Source of the DNA: a virus
Virus record (IMG/VR): IMGVR_UViG_3300028829_005709
Span: 1-48,192 of that record
Reading direction: 5' to 3' (one strand)
Length of the DNA: 48,192 nucleotides
The notes under the pieces were generated by a model. The model worked only from the letters and a program-made list of their open reading frames with translations, was not told the origin of the DNA and did not search any database. Every line of letters begins with the position of its first letter. Within the stretch, counting starts at the first letter, position 1. The position numbers were made by a program, and so were the translations under genes. Shown one piece after another: positions 2,302-18,187 of the stretch.

Positions 2302-3086
2302 TAATCAAACTCTCTTTCTTTTATAAACTCTTTTGTTTCAACTTTAAAGTTAGTAATCTTTATTAACTTTTCTGGTGATAAGTCTTTTTTGTCGTATAAA
2401 ACTCTTTTTTTAGCTATAGTAATAAGTAATTTAATCCAATTACTAATAAGTTTAAGGTCTAGAGTAGCATCTTGCATTCTTATTTCAATAGTATCTATTT
2501 CAGATATTTCTATTCCATAAGAATGACTACTATAAGTACAAATATTATTCAGATCTTGTTTTCTACAATAAGTAGAATATTTCCTATCATCTGAGGATAG
2601 TTTATATAAAAGATCTTGAGCATATAAAAAATTATGAAATACTTTATTTACGTCTCTATTTCTAGTATCTATATGTACATGCAATCCGCACGATTCGTTT
2701 GTATAAGCTTTATGATCTCTCAATATAAGCAAAACCTGTTTTAAAGTATTATTTATACTCGACTCCTCATCTATAACTTTAACCTCGTACCCTTCGCCTT
2801 GTTGTAGCGAATTAATACTACAATCAAAACCCAAAACTACTTTATTTTCCAGTCCTGAGTCTCTAATATCAAAAGCTATGTCGAAATATTCTGATTTAGA
2901 TATAAACTCTATTTCTACTCCTACATGATTCTTTTTTGATAGTGGAGTTATAAGCCTAGTATCTGAAACATCCTCAATAAGATCTCTCACAAAATAATTA
3001 CACCTATCTAAAACATCTTCCTTATAATAATACCTATCATCTAAATCACCAATATAATCTAATGCTCTTAAAACTCTTTTTATCAT
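2301..3086 (-). CDS. Amidoligase (COOH-NH2 ligase family), short paralogue
   Basis: The 261-residue product carries the Amidoligase_2 motif series in order: VGVEIEF (55-61), GFDCS (86-90), GYEVKV (99-104), CGLHVHID (133-140) and TIEIRM (199-204). The Glu-x-Glu, the His-x-His and the late Glu-x-Arg are the metal/ATP-binding residues of this glutamine-synthetase/GCS-like fold, which joins a carboxylate and an amine in an ATP-dependent amide bond. It is the minimal paralogue, lacking the long N-terminal domain of the other two. Its ATG overlaps the stop of the neighbouring amidoligase (TAATG), so the two are probably made in fixed ratio and may form a hetero-complex (inference). Substrate unknown. 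Confidence 0.87.
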   Translation of the reverse strand: MIKRVLRALDYIGDLDDRYYYKEDVLDRCNYFVRDLIEDVSDTRLITPLSKKNHVGVEIEFISKSEYFDIAFDIRDSGLENKVVLGFDCSINSLQQGEGYEVKVIDEESSINNTLKQVLLILRDHKAYTNESCGLHVHIDTRNRDVNKVFHNFLYAQDLLYKLSSDDRKYSTYCRKQDLNNICTYSSHSYGIEISEIDTIEIRMQDATLDLKLISNWIKLLITIAKKRVLYDKKDLSPEKLIKITNFKVETKEFIKEREFD

Positions 3087-4603
3087 TATGATACCCTCTC
3101 TTTTAAAAATTCAAATTGTTTTTTATCAATAACTTTAGTCTTTGTTAGAAATTTTACAGCTTCTAAAGCGGTAGCTCCTGCCGTTGCCGAATAAATAAGA
3201 TCTTTTTTATAATTAGAGATATTAACAAGTAATTTAATCCAATTTAATATCCTAGTTTTTTCTAAACATCCATCTAATAACCTAACTTCTATTGTTTCAA
3301 ATCTAGAGTAAGATGCCTTAGAACTAATTGCCATATACCTATCGTTTTCCGACTCATTCCATACATCGGTTTCAACTTTTTTACAATAAGTATTAAAAAC
3401 TCTGTCACTACTAACTAACTTTTGTAGTATTTTTTGTGACCTAACTAAGTTCCTAAAAACTCTTTCTTTATTCTTATTTCTAACATCTAAATGCACGTGC
3501 ACTCCGCACGATTCATTAACTCTCGCACCAAGATAGTTTAATACTTTTAAAGTTCTAGTAGTTACGCTTGCTATTTCATTTTCTGGAGCTATTATGTTTA
3601 CTTCTAAAGCAGACCAATCATCCCAATCACAATCATCATCTAATTCAATACTACTATCGCCTTTTACAAAAACATATTTATACAAATCAGCCTTTACAAA
3701 CATCTGTTTTAAATAGGACGGATCACTCTCAACAAAAAACTCTAATTCGACTCCTACACAATTTTCACTCATACTAGGGGCTTTAGTTGAATTAATATAA
3801 TCATCTTTAAAGTTTCGTATTATTGCTAAAAAAGTTCCCTCTCTATTATGCACTCCTCCAACAGTAAATATTTCGTTTCTATTGTTAATTACTCTATAAT
3901 TTACTTTTTTATCTCTGCTCTCTCGCCTTTTTATTTGTAATAACTCTTTTACTCTGCTTAATAAATAATTATACGCCCCAATATTTGAGCTAAAATGTTT
4001 AAACCCATATGCATTATATGTAGAAAAGGTAACATATGTACCAACACCTTTTTTAGGTAAAGAGCAATGCAATCTCATACGTCTACTCTCTTTTACTCTT
4101 AATCTAATAGCTATTATCTTATCCTTTAAGATTTTACCATAATTAGACTCCTTTTCTTTTTTGTCTAGAGAATTATACAAATCTAAAGTCTTATATAAAG
4201 TTGTAAACTCTTTACGAGTCACTGTAGTCTCTGATTTAATCTCTAATTTTAAATCTCGTAATGTTCTTCTATCAAAATATTTTCTGAAATAGTTTCTCAT
4301 GTTATTAACTCCTTTAGTGTTAGTTTGTATTGTTCCCCAGTCACTTATACTATCCAATACATATGAATGGCTATCAGCCATAATATTATTTGTTGGCATA
4401 TAATCTAGGTATGTTCCCCCTAAGTCTGCTTCCATATCCGCAATTAAAGCTACTACGCTACCTCTCCTAAGAGAGGCCCTATCATAAGGACTGGCAGCTC
4501 TATTAGCCGCCCTTCTTTGTCCTGCTATACTATTATCTGGCGGTATGCGATTATTATCATAACTTGCCGAGTTATAGTTTCTAGCATTTCTCCTACAAGA
4601 CAT
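3086..4603 (-). CDS. Amidoligase (COOH-NH2 ligase family), long paralogue
   Basis: In this 505-residue protein the C-terminal catalytic domain has VGVELEF (283-289), KGDSSIE (314-320), ALEVNIIAP (332-340), CGVHVHLD (366-373) and TIEVRL (437-442), the full Amidoligase_2 set. The first 280 residues form an extra region: an Arg/Asn-rich disordered start (1-50), then a helical, basic part and a segment (about 185-265) that resembles the N-terminal region of the amidoligase at 9545-10756. That extension could bind the acceptor protein or peptide. The gene is joined by one-base TAATG overlaps to the glutamine amidotransferase upstream and the short amidoligase downstream. Confidence 0.87.
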   Translation of the reverse strand: MSCRRNARNYNSASYDNNRIPPDNSIAGQRRAANRAASPYDRASLRRGSVVALIADMEADLGGTYLDYMPTNNIMADSHSYVLDSISDWGTIQTNTKGVNNMRNYFRKYFDRRTLRDLKLEIKSETTVTRKEFTTLYKTLDLYNSLDKKEKESNYGKILKDKIIAIRLRVKESRRMRLHCSLPKKGVGTYVTFSTYNAYGFKHFSSNIGAYNYLLSRVKELLQIKRRESRDKKVNYRVINNRNEIFTVGGVHNREGTFLAIIRNFKDDYINSTKAPSMSENCVGVELEFFVESDPSYLKQMFVKADLYKYVFVKGDSSIELDDDCDWDDWSALEVNIIAPENEIASVTTRTLKVLNYLGARVNESCGVHVHLDVRNKNKERVFRNLVRSQKILQKLVSSDRVFNTYCKKVETDVWNESENDRYMAISSKASYSRFETIEVRLLDGCLEKTRILNWIKLLVNISNYKKDLIYSATAGATALEAVKFLTKTKVIDKKQFEFLKERVS

Positions 4604-5889
4604 TAGCCGCCCCTTTTATGTCTTCTAGTTCTATTAATTAAACTAGCCTTTTTAATATTTTTATTGTTACTATCATAATTAGCATCATCAATATTCTTTA
4701 AGACAATATCGTTTAACTCTTCAAAATCATATCCGCCATCATTATCAAAAGGGTCTATAAATACCTTACTATAATTCTCTGATTGAACTTCCTCGGCTGT
4801 TAATAAATCATCATTTGTATGGTATTCTTTATGCTCTGGAATTTCTGCTTTGTATGGATCACGTTCATCAATTTTATCTTGCTCCCAATTATCTTTGCTG
4901 CCATCATTGTTAGTTTTCCACGCATTATAATACTCTTCATAATCTTTATTATCATCTTCCATTGCTTGTTTCCAATTCTCTCCGTATCTAGACTTATAAT
5001 AAGTTTCACCATTAGTAGTTGAATTATTATTACGTGCTTCAAATACAAAGTCGTTTTCTTCTATAACCTCTCCAGTAATGGCATTAAGTCTTAGCTGCAT
5101 ACGATCTCTCAAAAGAAAAGTCTTGCTTGTTTTATAACCTAAAACTCTACAAGTTGCTTCAACAGCCGTTGAGCTTGTGCAGAACATGCAAACGTCAAGG
5201 TCTTCTACATAAGTAATATGTAGAGTTGCATCCGCTTTAAACATATCCAAAATAGGAATAGTGTTTTTATCTTTATCAATAGTATTAGTTAATACTAAGC
5301 AAGCTAAATAAGCGTCAACATCATCTAAAGAACTTGGTAACTCTCTTGAATCCATAGCTACGCCATACATATTATATTGATGCAATAATATTTCACTGTC
5401 ACAAGTTGATAATGTCTTATAAAAAATAGGGTCTTGGTCATTATATATCATACCATTGTGAACTAGTGCCGTATTGTCTTCAACAAAAGGGTGCACTTCA
5501 TTTATGGTTTTATCTCCGCATGTAGAAAATCTACTATGCATTACTACAGCCACCGCATCCCCTAAAACTCCTGTACCATACTTAGCATATTTTTGTTCTC
5601 CTTGTGTATGCAATAAAGGATTGTCGCCTTCTATAGAAGTTCCAAACTTTTCTAATAAAATTTTATCACTTTCTGGAACACTTATCTCTTTAAACTCTTG
5701 TCTACGCTTCCAAGCCTCATTAGTATCTAACCACTTTTCGCCGTACACTTCGCCTTCTGCATTAATCGCAGCGTACCCAAATCCGTCTTGTTCTACTACG
5801 CATAATCTAGGCGTAATTGCTTTCATGACTCGGATCACTTTATCTCTATTTTTATTCGTTATTCCTGTTACTCCAAATACTTTACACAT
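4603..5889 (-). CDS. Class II glutamine amidotransferase-like protein
   Basis: The product (428 aa) starts Met-Cys, giving the N-terminal nucleophile Cys after Met removal. The rest of the GATase II site is present: HSRFSTCG (118-125) with the Arg that binds the glutamine carboxylate, HPF (133-135), the oxyanion segment VHNG (143-146) and CDSE (163-166). There is no synthase, sugar isomerase or asparagine-synthetase ATPase domain; residues after about 290 are acidic, Asn/Asp-rich and probably disordered. It should hydrolyse glutamine and hand ammonia, or a glutamyl group, to a partner. The partner is most likely the amidoligase encoded immediately downstream. It is the first gene after a consensus sigma-70 promoter. 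Confidence 0.88.
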   Translation of the reverse strand: MCKVFGVTGITNKNRDKVIRVMKAITPRLCVVEQDGFGYAAINAEGEVYGEKWLDTNEAWKRRQEFKEISVPESDKILLEKFGTSIEGDNPLLHTQGEQKYAKYGTGVLGDAVAVVMHSRFSTCGDKTINEVHPFVEDNTALVHNGMIYNDQDPIFYKTLSTCDSEILLHQYNMYGVAMDSRELPSSLDDVDAYLACLVLTNTIDKDKNTIPILDMFKADATLHITYVEDLDVCMFCTSSTAVEATCRVLGYKTSKTFLLRDRMQLRLNAITGEVIEENDFVFEARNNNSTTNGETYYKSRYGENWKQAMEDDNKDYEEYYNAWKTNNDGSKDNWEQDKIDERDPYKAEIPEHKEYHTNDDLLTAEEVQSENYSKVFIDPFDNDGGYDFEELNDIVLKNIDDANYDSNNKNIKKASLINRTRRHKRGG

Positions 5890-7256: not shown

Positions 7257-7285
7257 TTGACATATGTCTAAAAGTATGATACAAT
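7257..7285 (+). promoter_or_regulatory. Plus-strand sigma-70-type promoter for a non-coding RNA
   Basis: TTGACA at 7257-7262, a 17-base spacer and TACAAT at 7280-7285. It fires divergently from the minus-strand promoter at 7194-7222 into a stretch without any plausible ORF. The predicted start, near 7291-7293, coincides with the first base of a stem-forming segment. Confidence 0.75.
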
Positions 7286-7290
7286 TCAAT

Positions 7291-7576
7291 ATAGCCTAGA
7301 AGTGGTTTTAGTATTACCAAGTTAGAGGCTTTAAAGAACTAATTAAGACAAATACTTGTTACTTAGCACAAAGAACCTCTAAGTAAGTAAGTTCAAATAG
7401 AGCCTCTGCTTGAAGTCACTCCGAACTAACGACTGGCAATCAGTTATCGGACGGCCTAAACAATGAAGAATGTTAGGCTATCTTAAAGAACCTTTAGACA
7501 GAAGGTATTGCCCTTGCTTTATCTAAAAGCTCTTATAAGACCTTTAGTGAGTGATGCGCAGCGAATAACGAACGAT
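7291..7576 (+). ncRNA. Candidate structured non-coding RNA, about 285 nt
   Basis: No ORF of note exists on either strand, and a consensus promoter points into it. The first bases, ATAGCCTA (7291-7298), pair perfectly with TAGGCTAT (7474-7481). Inside are AGAGGCT (7324-7330) with AGCCTCT (7401-7407), and a long hairpin near 7420-7460 (CTCCGA/TCGGA outer stem; TAAC-ACTG/CAGTTA inner stem). The 5' segment AGCCT can instead pair with the nearer AGGCT at 7326-7330, so two folds are possible. AAAGAAC is repeated three times (7334, 7370, 7485 region), followed by CTnnTAG-like bases. No T-run terminator is obvious, so the 3' end is a guess. It matches no RNA class I know; tmRNA is excluded by the absence of a T-arm. 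Confidence 0.55.
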
Positions 7577-9437: not shown

Positions 9438-9545
9438 TTAACTATTTAATATGCCAAGTATTGATATCCCTATAAATGCTCCTAGCAACCACAATGCAGC
9501 GCTAGGAAAGAAAATCATTAATAACATTAAGATTATAAAAAACAT
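9438..9545 (-). CDS. Micro membrane protein (35 aa)
   Basis: Nearly the whole product is hydrophobic (two short segments around a central Pro-Ser). Its ATG overlaps the stop of the third amidoligase (TAATG). The short amidoligase at 2301-3086 is likewise followed by a TAATG-coupled membrane micro-protein, which is suggestive of a shared arrangement. Confidence 0.5.
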   Translation of the reverse strand: MFFIILMLLMIFFPSAALWLLGAFIGISILGILNS

Positions 9546-10756
9546 TAAGATGCTTCTGCAAATTTAGCAATGCGACTTTTTACATATACTTGTGCGTCTT
9601 CATTAAGCTTTATAATATCAAAAAACTTTTCGATTTTTACAGGGCAGCGCATTACTTTATCTTCCAAGTTTGCAATATTAGTTAATATGTTAACCCAATA
9701 GTTGATCTTTGTATCGCTTAACGTGGCACAATGCATTCGGACCTCAATAGTTTTATAGTTTCTATAGCTTTGAGCGTTTACGCCTTTATATCTACTATTG
9801 TAGCCGTTTCCTCTAATGTGTTTATCAAAGTCTTTTCCTCTAGTTAGCTTTGAGTATTGGCCATTTTTACGACTCTTAGGGTTCATTGCATACATATATT
9901 TTTGAAAAGTACATAAATTATGGAATACTGTTTTATGGTCTCTATTTCTAACATCTAAGTGAACATGTATTCCGCACGTTCTATTAGTCTTGCAGTCTAA
10001 CTTGGTCAATAAATCAGTTACTTGCTTTACTGTATTTTTAATATTACTTTCCGTATCTAAGATTGCAATTTCAACTCCAGAATAATCATTTGAAATTCCG
10101 TTATTATAAATTGAGCCGTCTCTTTTTATCGTTAACTTGTTTGCTAGTTCTGGCAATAAAGCAAAAAATTCCGATGATAATTCTTCTACACTGTCCAAAG
10201 ATAAAAATTCCATTTCAACCCCTACATACTTACTTGTGTCTTCATTTGAAGGACTGCACGACTCTCTAAAGGCTTTAGATTTTACAGCATTGGCCGCATT
10301 GAGGAAAATATTAGGCTTAGTATTAACCAAGCCTACAAGCCTAGTTCTACTACCTCCTACATAAATAGTTCTAGTATAGCGATAATTATTCATAAGCATA
10401 TTTTCTCTTTTCCTTTGAACGCCTCTTTTATAAGATCTATAAAGACTTGATACTATGCTATGCGTACCAGAAATATTTTTAGCCGTATCATAAGCCTCAA
10501 AATCATGTTTATCACTTTTAAGCGTTATTTTAAAATAACCTTGTGAGGCTTTTAAGGATATTAAGCCCTCTCTAAGATCACGTATTGACGATTTAAAATA
10601 ATAAAGATCTAAATTTCCACTAGTGCTGTTTTCCTTTCTAAACTTAATCATTGTCCTAAGCATAGCTTTTACTTCATTAATCTTTTTAAAATTCATTGCT
10701 GAACTTTTTGGCTTTACATGTTCAATTATTAATTCTAATCCATTCTTTTTAGACAT
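9545..10756 (-). CDS. Amidoligase (COOH-NH2 ligase family), third paralogue
   Basis: The 403-residue product has a catalytic domain with YVGVEMEF (177-184), KRDGSI (211-216), GVEIAI (227-232), CGIHVHLD (261-268) and TIEVRM (336-341), all diagnostic of Amidoligase_2. Residues 70-160 resemble positions 185-265 of the 505-residue paralogue (an aromatic strand, a basic helix, then a Tyr-Arg and Val-Gly-Gly segment), so these two share a family-specific N-terminal domain. It lies in a separate operon about 3.7 kb upstream of the amidotransferase pair. It may act on a second acceptor or extend the same product (inference). Confidence 0.87.
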   Translation of the reverse strand: MSKKNGLELIIEHVKPKSSAMNFKKINEVKAMLRTMIKFRKENSTSGNLDLYYFKSSIRDLREGLISLKASQGYFKITLKSDKHDFEAYDTAKNISGTHSIVSSLYRSYKRGVQRKRENMLMNNYRYTRTIYVGGSRTRLVGLVNTKPNIFLNAANAVKSKAFRESCSPSNEDTSKYVGVEMEFLSLDSVEELSSEFFALLPELANKLTIKRDGSIYNNGISNDYSGVEIAILDTESNIKNTVKQVTDLLTKLDCKTNRTCGIHVHLDVRNRDHKTVFHNLCTFQKYMYAMNPKSRKNGQYSKLTRGKDFDKHIRGNGYNSRYKGVNAQSYRNYKTIEVRMHCATLSDTKINYWVNILTNIANLEDKVMRCPVKIEKFFDIIKLNEDAQVYVKSRIAKFAEAS

Positions 10757-11735: not shown

Positions 11736-11773
11736 TTTTTTAATTCCTTTGTTTGAGTTTTTCTTCTACAATT

Positions 11774-11802
11774 ATTATCTCATAGGTAGGACATCATTAC
11801 AA
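11774..11802 (-). promoter_or_regulatory. Sigma-70-type promoter with CCTACCTA in the spacer
   Basis: Minus-strand TTGTAA, a 17-base spacer and GATAAT. The spacer contains CCTACCTA, a short word that recurs in the spacers of the promoters at 13461-13489 and 21580-21608 and could be an operator. It drives the genes at 11735 and 11501 leftward. Confidence 0.65.
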
Positions 11803-11818
11803 GATAAAAATTATCTTT

Positions 11819-11837
11819 TTAACAAGTAAATATAAGA
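11819..11837 (+). promoter_or_regulatory. Late-promoter-like motif (variant)
   Basis: TTAACAAGTAAATATAAGA is one of eight plus-strand copies of a motif whose consensus is TTAACAAGTATATATAGA. This copy precedes no ORF; it faces the structured region that follows. It lies just upstream of, and divergent to, the minus-strand promoter at 11774-11802. Confidence 0.6.
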
Positions 11838-11838
11838 G

Positions 11839-12100
11839 ACTGTGAAATAATGCTGCGCCGAATCAAGCGTGAGAGTCGAGACACATCGGGACAAACTAGG
11901 GTAATGTCTAGCATGGGGAACCTAACGATGACTAAGAAAGCGAATGTCAAAAGCACTTAGCGGAAAGCTCTGAATTATGCGTCAAGTGGCGCATTACCAT
12001 AGAATACTCGTGAATTTTAGAAGTAATGAGGTATGTTTAAAAGATTGACAATCGTCTACTCCATAGACATAGATATTCCTGTGCATTTTTGATAAATTAA
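11839..12100 (+). ncRNA. Candidate structured non-coding RNA
   Basis: There is no credible ORF on either strand. Pairings seen by eye: AATGC-GCGCC near 11850 with GGCGCATT (around 11987); the local hairpin ATGCG/CGCAT with an 8-base loop (about 11976-11993); CTAAG/CTTAG (about 11931 and 11957); and AGACA/TGTCT (about 11879 and 11907). Purine-rich single-stranded stretches (GGGGAACC, GCGGAAAGC) separate the stems, as in large folded RNAs. The boundaries are estimated, the 5' end from the late-promoter-like motif. I cannot assign a class; I see no group I intron or RNase P core. Confidence 0.45.
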
Positions 12101-12247
12101 GGAAAGTCAAGTAAAATATTAACTAAATTCTCTACTCCAATTAGGTAGGACTTGAGATAAAAAAATTTGGTGACACAAAAAACAAGCTTTGTCAACCTAA
12201 AAATAAATAAACTTTCTTCTTGACAAACAATAAAACACTCTCTGAAG

Positions 12248-12324
12248 CCAATACAGGCCCATTACAGCACGATAAAAAGCACCTATCCTCTACTACTAAT
12301 AAATAAATTACGTCCAATACAGGC
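12248..12324 (+). repeat. Two direct copies of CCAATACAGGC, 66 bp apart
   Basis: CCAATACAGGC at 12248-12258 and again at 12314-12324. In both copies a CAGCA follows 7-8 bases later, so the repeat unit is about 22 bases long. The area around them (12100-12390) is very AT-rich, has no gene, and contains hairpins such as GGTGACA/TGTC-ACC near 12170-12200. Iterons of a replication origin or operator sites are possible; neither is shown. Confidence 0.45.
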
Positions 12325-12398
12325 AATCCTCAGCATCGGCTAATTCTCCAATAATATCGGATATTTAGGAATAATTAAGAAATAACTTGACAACAGAC

Positions 12399-12415
12399 TT
12401 GGCATGGATCTTGCA
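12399..12415 (+). promoter_or_regulatory. Sigma-54-like promoter element
   Basis: TTGGCATGGATCTTGCA fits the -24/-12 consensus TGGCACG-N4-TTGC with the GG and GC doublets exactly 12 bases apart. A TTGACA lies 6 bases upstream. It points into the gene-poor region before 12700. Confidence 0.4.
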
Positions 12416-12452
12416 TAAAAAAGAAAAGTAAAATAAAGCTTGACATTGAAAG

Positions 12453-12469
12453 TTGGCACGAATATTGCA
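12453..12469 (+). promoter_or_regulatory. Sigma-54-like promoter element (best match)
   Basis: TTGGCACGAATATTGCA matches the sigma-54 consensus at every conserved base, with 12 bases from GG to GC. As in the copy 54 bases upstream, TTGACA precedes it and an A-rich run follows. A third, incomplete TTGGCATG (12493-12500) lacks the -12 half. Confidence 0.45.
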
Positions 12470-12512
12470 ATAAAAAAAGCAGGTGAGGAAAGTTGGCATG
12501 AAAAATCAGTTC

Positions 12513-12541
12513 TTGACACATATAAAAAAATCTGATATAAT
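12513..12541 (+). promoter_or_regulatory. Perfect consensus sigma-70 promoter
   Basis: TTGACA (12513-12518), a 17-base spacer and TATAAT (12536-12541), both hexamers perfect. The predicted start is near 12548. No ORF with a start codon follows the AAGGAGGAGG that lies just downstream, so a small RNA is the likely product. Confidence 0.75.
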
Positions 12542-12547
12542 ATAAGG

Positions 12548-12676
12548 AGGAGGCGGGTAGAATCTCTGTATATAACTAAAACTTGTTTAGAAAACCTCAG
12601 AATAATCATAAGAAATATTTCGGGCAGGGGAGGTGAGAGTCCCTTGCTTCTAAAAGGTCTATAATTAATTATAACA
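12548..12676 (+). ncRNA. Candidate small RNA, about 130 nt
   Basis: Begins close to AAGGAGGAGGCGGG, an unusually strong anti-SD-complementary sequence that is not followed by any start codon at a useful distance. GCAGGGGA (near 12625) pairs with TCCCTTGC over 8 base pairs with an 8-base loop. The 3' end is unknown; transcription may stop near the inverted repeat at 12679-12700. A ribosome- or anti-SD-binding decoy is one idea; there is no direct evidence. Confidence 0.4.
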
Positions 12677-12678
12677 TT

Positions 12679-12699
12679 AAAAAAAGGGTTTTGCAACCC
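12679..12699 (-). terminator. Rho-independent terminator
   Basis: Read on the minus strand: GGGTT-GCAA-AACCC (5-bp stem, GCAA tetraloop) followed by seven T. It lies 15 bases after the stop of the gene at 12714-12908 and ends that minus-strand unit. Confidence 0.8.
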
Positions 12700-12713
12700 C
12701 TAAATCAATTATT

Positions 12714-13460: not shown

Positions 13461-13489
13461 TTGACAAACCTACCTTTATATGATATAGT
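13461..13489 (+). promoter_or_regulatory. Sigma-70-type promoter for the tRNA-like/large RNA
   Basis: TTGACA (13461-13466), a 17-base spacer and TATAGT (13484-13489). The predicted start, about 13496, is the first base of the tRNA-like acceptor stem. CCTACCT (13469-13475) lies in the spacer. Confidence 0.75.
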
Positions 13490-13495
13490 AATAAT

Positions 13496-13563
13496 GTAGA
13501 TGGGACCTGGGTGGCCTGCATTAGAGAGATCTAGTGTATGTAAGTTCGATTCTTACCATCTAC
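13496..13563 (+). ncRNA. tRNA-like cloverleaf without an anticodon loop
   Basis: GTAGATG (13496-13502) pairs perfectly over 7 bp with CATCTAC (13557-13563). The T-arm is canonical: GTAAG-TTCGATT-CTTAC (13540-13556), joined directly to the acceptor stem. The D-arm position has a small GG(A)CC/GGCC hairpin with loop TGGGT (13503-13516). The anticodon position has a 7-bp stem CATTAGA/TCTAGTG closed by a GAGA tetraloop (13519-13536), so no 7-base anticodon loop can form. The whole is 68 nt, shorter than a normal tRNA. It could be an RNase P/CCA-enzyme substrate or mimic, or the 5' domain of the RNA that follows. Confidence 0.6.
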
Positions 13564-13564
13564 G

Positions 13565-14240
13565 GTAGGCGGCGTTGGAAGCTGTGGTCGTGGTACTGGT
13601 AATTCGGGACTATGGACGCTGGAGAACGCACTTATAGCTAGTAAGATTTATATCTGGAGTAGCGAAGCAAAGACCAATCACTGTTTAGCAGCAGTATAGT
13701 AGTCAATGTGTGTAGTGAAGATATAACTGTCAGAGTAGCGACTGGCCCTACCTTTTTTTGATATTTACCGATAACTGGGATTGATAGGTTCGCCAGTAAG
13801 CCCTTGGTGTATGTTTAGCACGTTGGATAGACTCCAGAGGATATGGCAGACCGAGCTTATCAGTTAGCCCTGTTGCTAGTATCAAGTTAAGCTTATCAAA
13901 CGCATGGATGAAAGTCCTGGTTCGCCCTGACTTGAGAAAAGAACAGGGAAAGTTATTTTTCTAGCTTTCTCGGCTAAAGAGCTATATTCAAATGAATAAG
14001 GATTATTCCTAAGAAAGGCTTATTTGACTGAGTTATACTTATTCATTTATTAGCCATAACCTACCTGTAACATTTTACTAACTATCGGGATATACCTCAT
14101 GGTATGTAGGTAGGCTATATATCGCGATTTGCTCGTCTAGGTAGGATTCTATTTTATATTATTTTTAGGATAATGATAGTGGGGCTGTCTACCTCAAGTA
14201 TTTATATGATAGTATAGAGTATATACTACCTCATAGTAAT
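13565..14240 (+). ncRNA. Candidate large structured non-coding RNA (up to about 740 nt with the tRNA-like part)
   Basis: No ORF above noise is seen for 700 bases. Stems found by eye: ACTGG/CCAGT (13774-13778, 13793-13797); CCCTG/CAGGG (13925-13929, 13944-13948); AAGTC/GACTT (13912-13916, 13928-13932); alternative pairings of AAATGAATAAG (around 13993) with CTTATTTGA or CTTATTCATTT; CCTACCT/AGGTAGG (14060-14066, 14108-14114) enclosing ATACC/GGTAT. Repeated words are GAGTAGCGA (13657, 13733) and GGTTCGCC (13787, 13919). Large phage RNAs such as GOLLD and ROOL are typically found beside tRNAs and lack ORFs; this could be one of them or a new class. A T7 run at 13753-13759 might instead end a shorter RNA. 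Confidence 0.5.
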
Positions 14241-14276: not shown

Positions 14277-14522
14277 ATGTCAGACAAAATCAACAAAGAA
14301 ATATTAGAATTGCTAGAAAAAAGAAAGCGTGAAGAAATCTCTAAGGTAGGCAAGGAGTCTCGCAGAGAAGCTCGTATTATGGAGAAAGGTAGTCCACTTA
14401 GGGGTAAGGCCAAAGAAGCTCGTGACGAGGCTATGGACTACGCTAAGGCTAAGAAAAAGTACCGTGACGATAATATGAAAAAGAAGAAGTCTAGGTTCTT
14501 GGGAATGTTCAAGAAGGACTAA
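14277..14522 (+). CDS. Highly charged basic helical protein (81 aa)
   Basis: More than half of the residues are Lys, Arg, Glu or Asp; the protein is predicted to be a long helix with a basic C-terminus ending RFLGMFKKD. It stands alone on the plus strand, behind a late-type motif, and converges with a minus-strand operon (4-base overlap of coding ends). The composition suggests a nucleic-acid-associated or packaged virion protein (inference). Confidence 0.65.
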   Translation: MSDKINKEILELLEKRKREEISKVGKESRREARIMEKGSPLRGKAKEARDEAMDYAKAKKKYRDDNMKKKKSRFLGMFKKD

Positions 14523-17454: not shown

Positions 17455-17909
17455 TTTAAATCCTCTATTGTTTGTTTATATAGATAAGCTATATTTTGAA
17501 AAGAGCAGTTATACATCTTACTTATATCTACGTTAGAATACCCATTTAATTTATGCTTTAGCACATCTTTTCTTTGTTCCGACATATTATCTATTTTAGT
17601 ATAAAGCCTATTCATTATAACTGACTCATTTATATTATAACACATCTCATATTCTTTGTCAACCTTTTTCATTATATCATCGAATTTAGGTCTTAGGGGT
17701 TTAAAATAAGATATGAGCTTGTAGTATATAGTTTTATATGCGAATGTAGAGAACTTACCTTTTTCGGGATCGAAGTTGTCTGTGGCATTCCATAAGGCTA
17801 TTAAGGCCACCTGATCTATATCATCTCTAGTTCTATGTCCAGAAGGTTTATATCTATTTGATAGTTTATAGGCTAATCCTACATTGTCGTTGAATAACTG
17901 TTCTTTCAT
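17451..17909 (-). CDS. Phage sigma-70-family RNA polymerase sigma factor
   Basis: The 152-residue product has region 2 at about 8-70: DDIDQVALIALWNATDNF with FDPEKGKFSTFAYKTI (46-61), the typical core-binding and -10 melting segments (usual DLxQxGxxGLxxAxxxFDPxxGxxFSTYA). After a 35-residue linker comes a helix-turn-helix (about 108-150, MSEQRKDVLKHKLNG...) that fits region 4. Regions 1 and 3 are absent, as in ECF or phage sigma factors. It should redirect host polymerase, most likely to the eight TTAACAAGTATATATAGA motifs in front of late operons (inference). Confidence 0.88.
   Translation of the reverse strand: MKEQLFNDNVGLAYKLSNRYKPSGHRTRDDIDQVALIALWNATDNFDPEKGKFSTFAYKTIYYKLISYFKPLRPKFDDIMKKVDKEYEMCYNINESVIMNRLYTKIDNMSEQRKDVLKHKLNGYSNVDISKMYNCSFQNIAYLYKQTIEDLK
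17634..17662 (-). promoter_or_regulatory. Perfect sigma-70 promoter inside the sigma factor gene
   Basis: Minus-strand TTGACA (17662-17657), a 17-base spacer and TATAAT (17639-17634), located in the part of the gene that codes for the linker between regions 2 and 4. It would start RNA near 17627 and give separate expression of the downstream membrane, Tat-like, metzincin and cytochrome genes. Confidence 0.6.
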
Positions 17910-18187
17910 TGAATACCCTTCATTACATCTAAATTCTTAGTTTTACCACAAGTACTACATTCTAATACGTCAAATAAGAATCTCTTCTCTAATTTCCATT
18001 TGTGGCTACAAGAAGGGGGATCAGATAGCTTTCCCAGTTGGTCTACATGGTAACTCATCTGAGGAGGGATTAAGTTAGTATCCCAAAATTCTACTAAAAG
18101 TTTACCGCTTTTTCTTACTCTTTTTACTGTACCAACTACATTGCTGGGATGGTGCTTGATTTTTACGCTATCTCCGATTTTAAACAT
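17906..18187 (-). CDS. SH3/KOW-like domain plus zinc-ribbon protein (93 aa)
   Basis: Residues 1-38 (MFKIGDSVKIKHHP, VVGTVKRVRKSGKLLVEF) look like a KOW/SH3 barrel. The C-terminal half has Cys60-x-His and, 16 residues on, CSTCGK (77-82), a zinc ribbon. It overlaps the sigma factor start by 4 bases. A transcription-linked role is plausible because KOW and ribbon domains occur in polymerase-binding factors; this is inference from context. Confidence 0.62.
   Translation of the reverse strand: MFKIGDSVKIKHHPSNVVGTVKRVRKSGKLLVEFWDTNLIPPQMSYHVDQLGKLSDPPSCSHKWKLEKRFLFDVLECSTCGKTKNLDVMKGIQ

What the first reader, a model, noticed from the sequence alone, without database searches (positions are those of the whole stretch)
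13461..14240. Large structured RNA led by a tRNA-like cloverleaf that has no anticodon
A consensus promoter starts exactly at a perfect acceptor stem; acceptor and T-arm are canonical tRNA, but the anticodon arm is a 7-bp stem with a GAGA tetraloop. About 680 further bases lack ORFs and contain many stems and repeated loop words. GOLLD and ROOL RNAs of phages are known to sit beside tRNAs and reach 500-800 nt; this could be a member or a new class in which a tRNA mimic is the 5' domain.
Basis: partly seen in the sequence, partly recalled or inferred. Interest (0 to 1): 0.75.

Follow-up and report, generated by a model that had tools for sequence, protein, structure and literature searches.

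The report
New phage RNA with tRNA-like cap
The stretch encodes a roughly 264-base phage RNA made of an anticodon-less tRNA look-alike fused to a member of a widespread, previously uncatalogued phage RNA family whose fold is supported by covariation, which points to an unknown RNA function shared by many environmental phages.

Summary
The tRNA-like cloverleaf is real, but the 780-nt "large RNA" is not. A strong promoter (13461-13489) is expected to fire at 13496, the first base of a perfect acceptor stem; Rfam's tRNA model scores the cloverleaf 23.6 bits, below its cut-off of 29. No GOLLD or ROOL match exists. Directly behind the cloverleaf (13564-13752) lies a member of a conserved RNA family absent from Rfam 15. 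A model built from 16 phage relatives, window held out, finds it at 57.7 bits (E=3.4e-13). Across 55 distinct sequences all 20 modelled pairs show compensatory changes. The closing stem is followed by a U-run (13753-13759), so the transcript is about 264 nt; 13760-14240 is not shown to belong. In promoter-led relatives transcription starts at the RNA's own first stem, so the tRNA-like is an added 5' module. tRNA-like pieces recur in variable arms of, or just upstream of, other members. Neighbouring genes are not conserved. A very conserved relative sits on chromosomes of one alphaproteobacterial lineage, behind treY where checked. Function is unknown; my best guess is a trans-acting scaffold RNA with variable arms into which tRNA-like modules were captured.

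The parts
13461..13489 (+). sigma70-type promoter TTGACA-17-TATAGT with extended -10; start expected at ~13496
   Evidence: relatives L199, L203 and L210 have a promoter whose expected +1 falls on P1 of the core RNA (by inspection)
13496..13564 (+). tRNA-like 5' module: acceptor 13496-13502/13557-13563, reduced D-arm 13503-13516, central hairpin 13517-13538 (9 bp, GAGA loop, no anticodon), T-arm 13540-13556, discriminator position 13564
   Evidence: z -2 to -3
13564..13752 (+). core of the new RNA family (held-out covariance-model hit 13564-13755)
   Evidence: 57.7 bits, E=3.4e-13; family covariation
13564..13569 (+). P1 5' strand GGUAGG, pairs with 13747-13752
13572..13629 (+). P2 (13572-13575/13626-13629), internal loop GGAAGCU (13577-13583) / UGGAGA (13620-13625), short P3 (13584-13586/13617-13619) and variable P3 loop
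13630..13728 (+). variable P4 region (includes helix UUAUAUC/GAUAUAA by inspection)
   Evidence: inspection of the sequence
13729..13746 (+). P5 hairpin GUCAG-AGUAGCGA-CUGGC with conserved 8-nt loop
13747..13759 (+). P1 3' strand CCUACC followed by U7: intrinsic-terminator-like end
   Evidence: 31 of 55 members have a U-run here versus 4.7 expected

Best explanation
The locus encodes a discrete phage non-coding RNA of about 264 nt (13496 to ~13759) with two modules. Shown by comparative evidence: 13564-13752 belongs to a new RNA family with closing stem P1, a two-nt linker, P2/P3 around a conserved internal loop, a variable P4 region, and hairpin P5 with loop AGU(A/C)GCG(A/C/U) abutting P1; a U-run after P1 marks the likely 3' end. 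Shown by sequence: an anticodon-less tRNA-like cloverleaf occupies the place between the promoter's expected +1 and P1. Inferred: the RNA acts in trans during infection. The invariant loops bind a constant partner (protein or RNP), and the variable arms (P3, P4, 5' module) are exchangeable effector or handle modules into which tRNAs and tRNA-like pieces have been captured. The 5' tRNA-like most likely serves as a stabilising or processing handle: tRNA 3' processing after the discriminator base 13564 would give the same 5' end (GTAGG...) that relatives obtain from their promoters.
For: Held-out window scores 57.7 bits, E=3.4e-13, against a model built from other phages. 16-sequence alignment: 99.4% of cells paired, 14 of 20 pairs with changes on both sides, 0/500 shuffles; 55 distinct sequences: 20/20 pairs; the top mutual-information pairs are those of the modelled helices. 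P1 was in no search pattern. No conserved gene neighbour, own promoters in the window, L199, L203, L210, and U-runs in 31/55 suggest an autonomous RNA. T-arm hairpins inside P3/P4: 5 found versus 0.38 expected. A tRNA-like (48.6 bits with Rfam tRNA, missed by ARAGORN) lies directly 5' of the RNA in L266, an ordinary tRNA-Tyr in L139. Chromosomal homologues with strong sequence conservation and a covarying pseudoknot.
Against: No expression data were available. Function and partner are inferred. Most members lack any tRNA-like module, so it is not essential to the family. Many members sit a few nt behind a co-directional stop codon, which also fits a cis-acting 3'-UTR or attenuator role. No unusual antisense match to the rest of the window was found.
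Confidence: 0.6

Rival explanations
1. The core RNA is a cis-acting attenuator or 3'-end element: folding of P1 followed by the U-run stops transcription and controls the gene that often starts right behind it.
For: U-run after P1' in 31/55 versus 4.7 expected; 41/55 have a co-directional downstream ORF and 35/55 a co-directional upstream ORF, often within 25 nt.
Against: Downstream genes are unrelated; 24/55 lack a U-run; tandem copies occur; in the window the next ORF is ~520 nt away and has its own AACAAGTA-type upstream motif.
Confidence: 0.22
2. The tRNA-like is a decaying tRNA gene that by chance sits in front of the RNA; only the core matters.
For: Score below the tRNA gathering cut-off; most relatives lack it; other members contain or adjoin ordinary or degenerate tRNAs.
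Against: Acceptor and T-arm are perfect and the promoter's expected +1 falls exactly on the acceptor; other tRNA-like pieces without an ordinary anticodon arm occur in L182, L184 and L266.
Confidence: 0.3
3. One ~780-nt ornate RNA of the GOLLD/ROOL sort.
For: Phage origin, tRNA-like nearby; part of 13760-14060 folds better than shuffles (z=-2.75).
Against: No Rfam match; whole-region z=-0.97; P1' plus U7 closes the RNA at 13759; no homologue of 13760-14240 found.
Confidence: 0.04
4. The cloverleaf is a chance fold.
For: Similar acceptor plus T-arm patterns occur 0.4 times per shuffled window.
Against: Exact coincidence with the promoter's expected +1 and with the start of the conserved RNA; consensus T-loop.
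Confidence: 0.05

Closest known systems
GOLLD RNA (phage/prophage; PMC12286853)
   Same: Phage non-coding RNA with a conserved part and a variable part that sometimes contains tRNAs; function unknown.
   Different: GOLLD members often exceed 800 nt and have another fold; no cmscan match here; this core is about 75-280 nt in the members found.
ROOL RNA (PMC12286853)
   Same: Phage/prophage structured RNA often near tRNA islands.
   Different: No cmscan match; different size and fold.
tRNA (RF00005)
   Same: Acceptor stem, T-arm and T-loop of the 5' module.
   Different: No anticodon, reduced D-arm, no CCA; below the gathering score; fused to another RNA.
tmRNA tRNA-like domain
   Same: Acceptor plus T-arm with a weak D-arm and no anticodon loop, attached to a larger RNA (from general knowledge; see also abstract of PMC3985003).
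   Different: Here the tRNA-like is a contiguous 5' block, not formed by the two ends; no tmRNA match by ARAGORN or Rfam.

Membership tests
GOLLD | match to the Rfam covariance model | tested here: not met
   no match in the window at gathering score or E<=10
ROOL | match to the Rfam covariance model | tested here: not met
tRNA | score above the RF00005 gathering cut-off | tested here: not met
   23.6 versus 29 bits
tRNA | 7-nt anticodon loop | tested here: not met
   central arm is a 9-bp hairpin with a GAGA loop; ARAGORN none
tRNA | acceptor stem and T-arm with consensus T-loop | tested here: met
tRNA | RNase P processing, CCA addition, aminoacylation | not testable with these tools
   needs the bench; the expected +1 coincides with G1, so no 5' leader is predicted
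tmRNA | tag-encoding tmRNA found by model | tested here: not met
new phage RNA family (model R1) | significant match of a held-out sequence to the covariance model | tested here: met
   57.7 bits, E=3.4e-13
new phage RNA family (model R1) | P1, P2, P3, P5 with conserved loops GGAAGCU, UGGAGA, AGU(A/C)GCG | tested here: met
   P3 is weak in the window (one mismatch and a G-U) and P2 has 4 sure pairs
any known Rfam family for the core | match at the position of the core in the window, in relatives or in chromosomal copies | tested here: not met

The most novel reading that the evidence does not exclude
A previously undescribed, widespread phage RNA family with a chromosomal counterpart forms a scaffold whose variable arms repeatedly capture tRNAs and turn them into anticodon-less tRNA mimics, giving phages modular RNA decoys or handles for the tRNA-handling machinery.
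Probability: 0.3. Interest if true: 0.9.

Novelty: categorically new. Interest (0 to 1): 0.78.

Why it matters
It gives a testable model (alignment, secondary structure, covariance model R1) for an RNA family found in dozens of environmental phage contigs from about 8 to 175 kb and on chromosomes of one bacterial lineage, yet absent from Rfam 15. Such strongly conserved unpaired loops usually mean a specific partner. The recurrent association with tRNA-like modules links it to the open question of why phage non-coding RNAs such as GOLLD and ROOL travel with tRNAs. 'Categorically new' refers to the RNA family; I could not search unpublished or subscription-only descriptions.

Tried and rejected
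DNA similarity to cultured phages and plasmids: nothing useful. The neighbouring 81-aa protein as bait: no relatives. Exact search for the T-arm/acceptor word: no match. Terminase relatives alone: no DNA match to the region; portal relatives gave the break. A relaxed ARAGORN run on members gave only noise. Antisense pairing of the RNA to the window: longest match 13 nt, within the shuffled range. Gene-neighbour enrichment: none. Bacteroidota genomes: 0 of 296 with strict filters, which the tool warns shows nothing without a positive control. Literature: no description of the chromosomal RNA found in two Bradyrhizobium papers, but I do not know that the lineage is Bradyrhizobium. Two early descriptor scripts had coding errors and returned almost nothing (one search was partial); they were corrected. 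The script stopped part-way and that failed; the latter was rerun. A Pfam call with wrong coordinates failed and was replaced.

Full report
Observation. The promoter and cloverleaf are as described. TTGACA-17-TATAGT with an extended -10 predicts a start at 13496, the first base of a perfect 7-bp acceptor stem. The T-arm (13540-13556) is canonical, and the central arm is a 9-bp hairpin (13517-13538) with a GAGA loop and no anticodon. Rfam's tRNA model gives 23.6 bits (cut-off 29) and ARAGORN calls nothing. The cloverleaf folds better than shuffles (z -2 to -3). The 764-nt region as a whole hardly does (z=-0.97), and no GOLLD or ROOL match exists.

Finding relatives. The window is a 48-kb virus record of IMG/VR whose terminase and portal proteins define a group of environmental phages with contigs up to ~88 kb. 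A DNA search of 50 portal-sharing records showed two with short matches to about 13728-13758 and, in one, to 13565-13588 on the same strand. Reading them revealed a shared RNA: promoter, then GTAGG(N)CGGYGYKGGAAGCTGTKG, a variable stretch, CTGGAGA plus the second P2 strand, another variable stretch, GCCAGAGTMGCGACTGGC, the complement of the first stem, and a T-run.

The family. Two sequence-pattern scans and a gapped one of IMG/VR gave many more members on diverse phage contigs from 8 to 175 kb. Alignment of 16 members without the window (A2) supports four helices: 99.4% of cells paired, 14 of 20 pairs with changes on both sides, no shuffle equalling this, and all slid controls at 30-42% pairing. 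P1 was not used in any pattern. A covariance model from these 16 found the held-out window at 13564-13755 with 57.7 bits, E=3.4e-13. With 55 distinct matches every one of 20 pairs shows compensatory change, and mutual information ranks modelled pairs on top. That larger alignment is fitted to the model, so the 16-sequence result plus the held-out hit are the cleaner evidence; a descriptor that scored pairing also helped pick some members. Nothing in Rfam 15 matches the core in the window or in the relatives tested.

Anatomy in the window. P1 is 13564-13569/13747-13752; the CG linker is 13570-13571; P2 is 13572-13575/13626-13629; the internal loop is GGAAGCU/UGGAGA; P3 is weak here; P4 (13630-13728) is variable; P5 is 13729-13746 with loop AGUAGCGA; U7 is 13753-13759. 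In L199, L203 and L210 the promoter's expected start falls on P1 itself (by inspection). In the window that position is taken by the tRNA-like block, whose discriminator position, 13564, is also the first base of P1.

tRNA link. Of 47 members scanned, five carry a consensus T-arm inside P3 or P4 (L182, L187, L184, L115, L117) against 0.38 expected from shuffles, and the window carries one upstream. By inspection, the L182 and L184 pieces also have an acceptor-like stem and a short hairpin instead of an anticodon arm; minimum-energy folding does not return the full cloverleaf for these pieces, and Rfam's tRNA model did not score L184, L115, L182 or L187, so they are T-arm-bearing fragments rather than proven tRNAs. 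L117 scores 28.4 bits with the tRNA model and ARAGORN calls it a tRNA without a normal anticodon. A targeted scan found L266, where a tRNA (48.6 bits, 109 nt, with an enlarged central arm and missed by ARAGORN) ends a few nt before P1. In L139 an ordinary tRNA-Tyr ends just upstream. The association is therefore recurrent but occurs in a minority of members.

Context. Neighbouring genes differ between members. Many copies start within 25 nt of an upstream co-directional stop codon, and 31 of 55 are followed by a U-run against 4.7 expected. Several records hold two copies, some in tandem. Only 9 of 36 portal-sharing records tested have it, so it is not tied to this phage lineage.

Chromosomal counterpart. 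One of 398 Pseudomonadota genomes and 13 of 41 relatives of that genome, itself included, carry a very conserved copy without P3 (81% mean column identity in 11 copies); in a class-wide draw it is 4 of 385 genomes. In the three cases where the upstream gene was tested it is TreY. Its P4 holds a pseudoknot whose second helix changes in step (GGCCAU/AUGGCC, GACCAU/AUGGUC, GGUCAU/AUGACC). Direction of transfer between phage and chromosome is unknown. That the lineage is alphaproteobacterial is my inference from gene content, not told by the tools.

How it may work. Shown: a discrete, conserved fold with invariant unpaired loops and a terminator-like end. Inferred: a trans-acting scaffold RNA with a constant partner and exchangeable arms; the 5' tRNA-like is a stabilising or processing handle. 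A cis-acting attenuator remains the main rival, and the tRNA-like may simply be a relic. I put about 0.95 on the family assignment and structure, and about 0.3 on the proposed mode of action; 0.6 is the combined figure.

Noticed in passing
window 13760-14060: Non-coding stretch behind the RNA's U-run that folds better than shuffles on the + strand (z=-2.75); no homologue found.
   Followed up: partly
window ~7257-7500: Another TTGACA-17-TACAAT promoter followed by an ORF-free stretch with significant folding (z about -2.3 to -3.5), ends complementary (AUAGCCUA/UUAGGCUAU).
   Followed up: partly
window 11736-12713: Almost 1 kb without a convincing gene; holds a perfect promoter TTGACA-17-TATAAT at 12513-12541 (+) and a GC-richer stretch 11835-12030 behind an AACAAGTA motif.
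   Followed up: partly
window 11821, 14253, 18224, 21625, 23920, 37595, 38692, 41519 (+): Recurrent intergenic motif resembling TTTAACAAGTATATATAGA, probably a phage-specific promoter; the 81-aa ORF at 14277 has one.
   Followed up: partly
window 3086-5889 and 9545-10756: PHROG matches to amidoligase and glutamine aminotransferase families.
   Followed up: no
L201 1501-1870 and L202 1288-1704: Tandem copies of the RNA family side by side.
   Followed up: no
L173 4774-4847 (-): Minimal member: P1, P2 and P3 only, lacking P4 and P5.
   Followed up: no
L112 2335-2392 (+): Sub-threshold type II hammerhead ribozyme match, 30.9 bits, E=0.017.
   Followed up: no
G002 contig 17474-18070 (in L009): Another promoter-led, well-folding ORF-free stretch in a relative (z=-2.68).
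   Followed up: no
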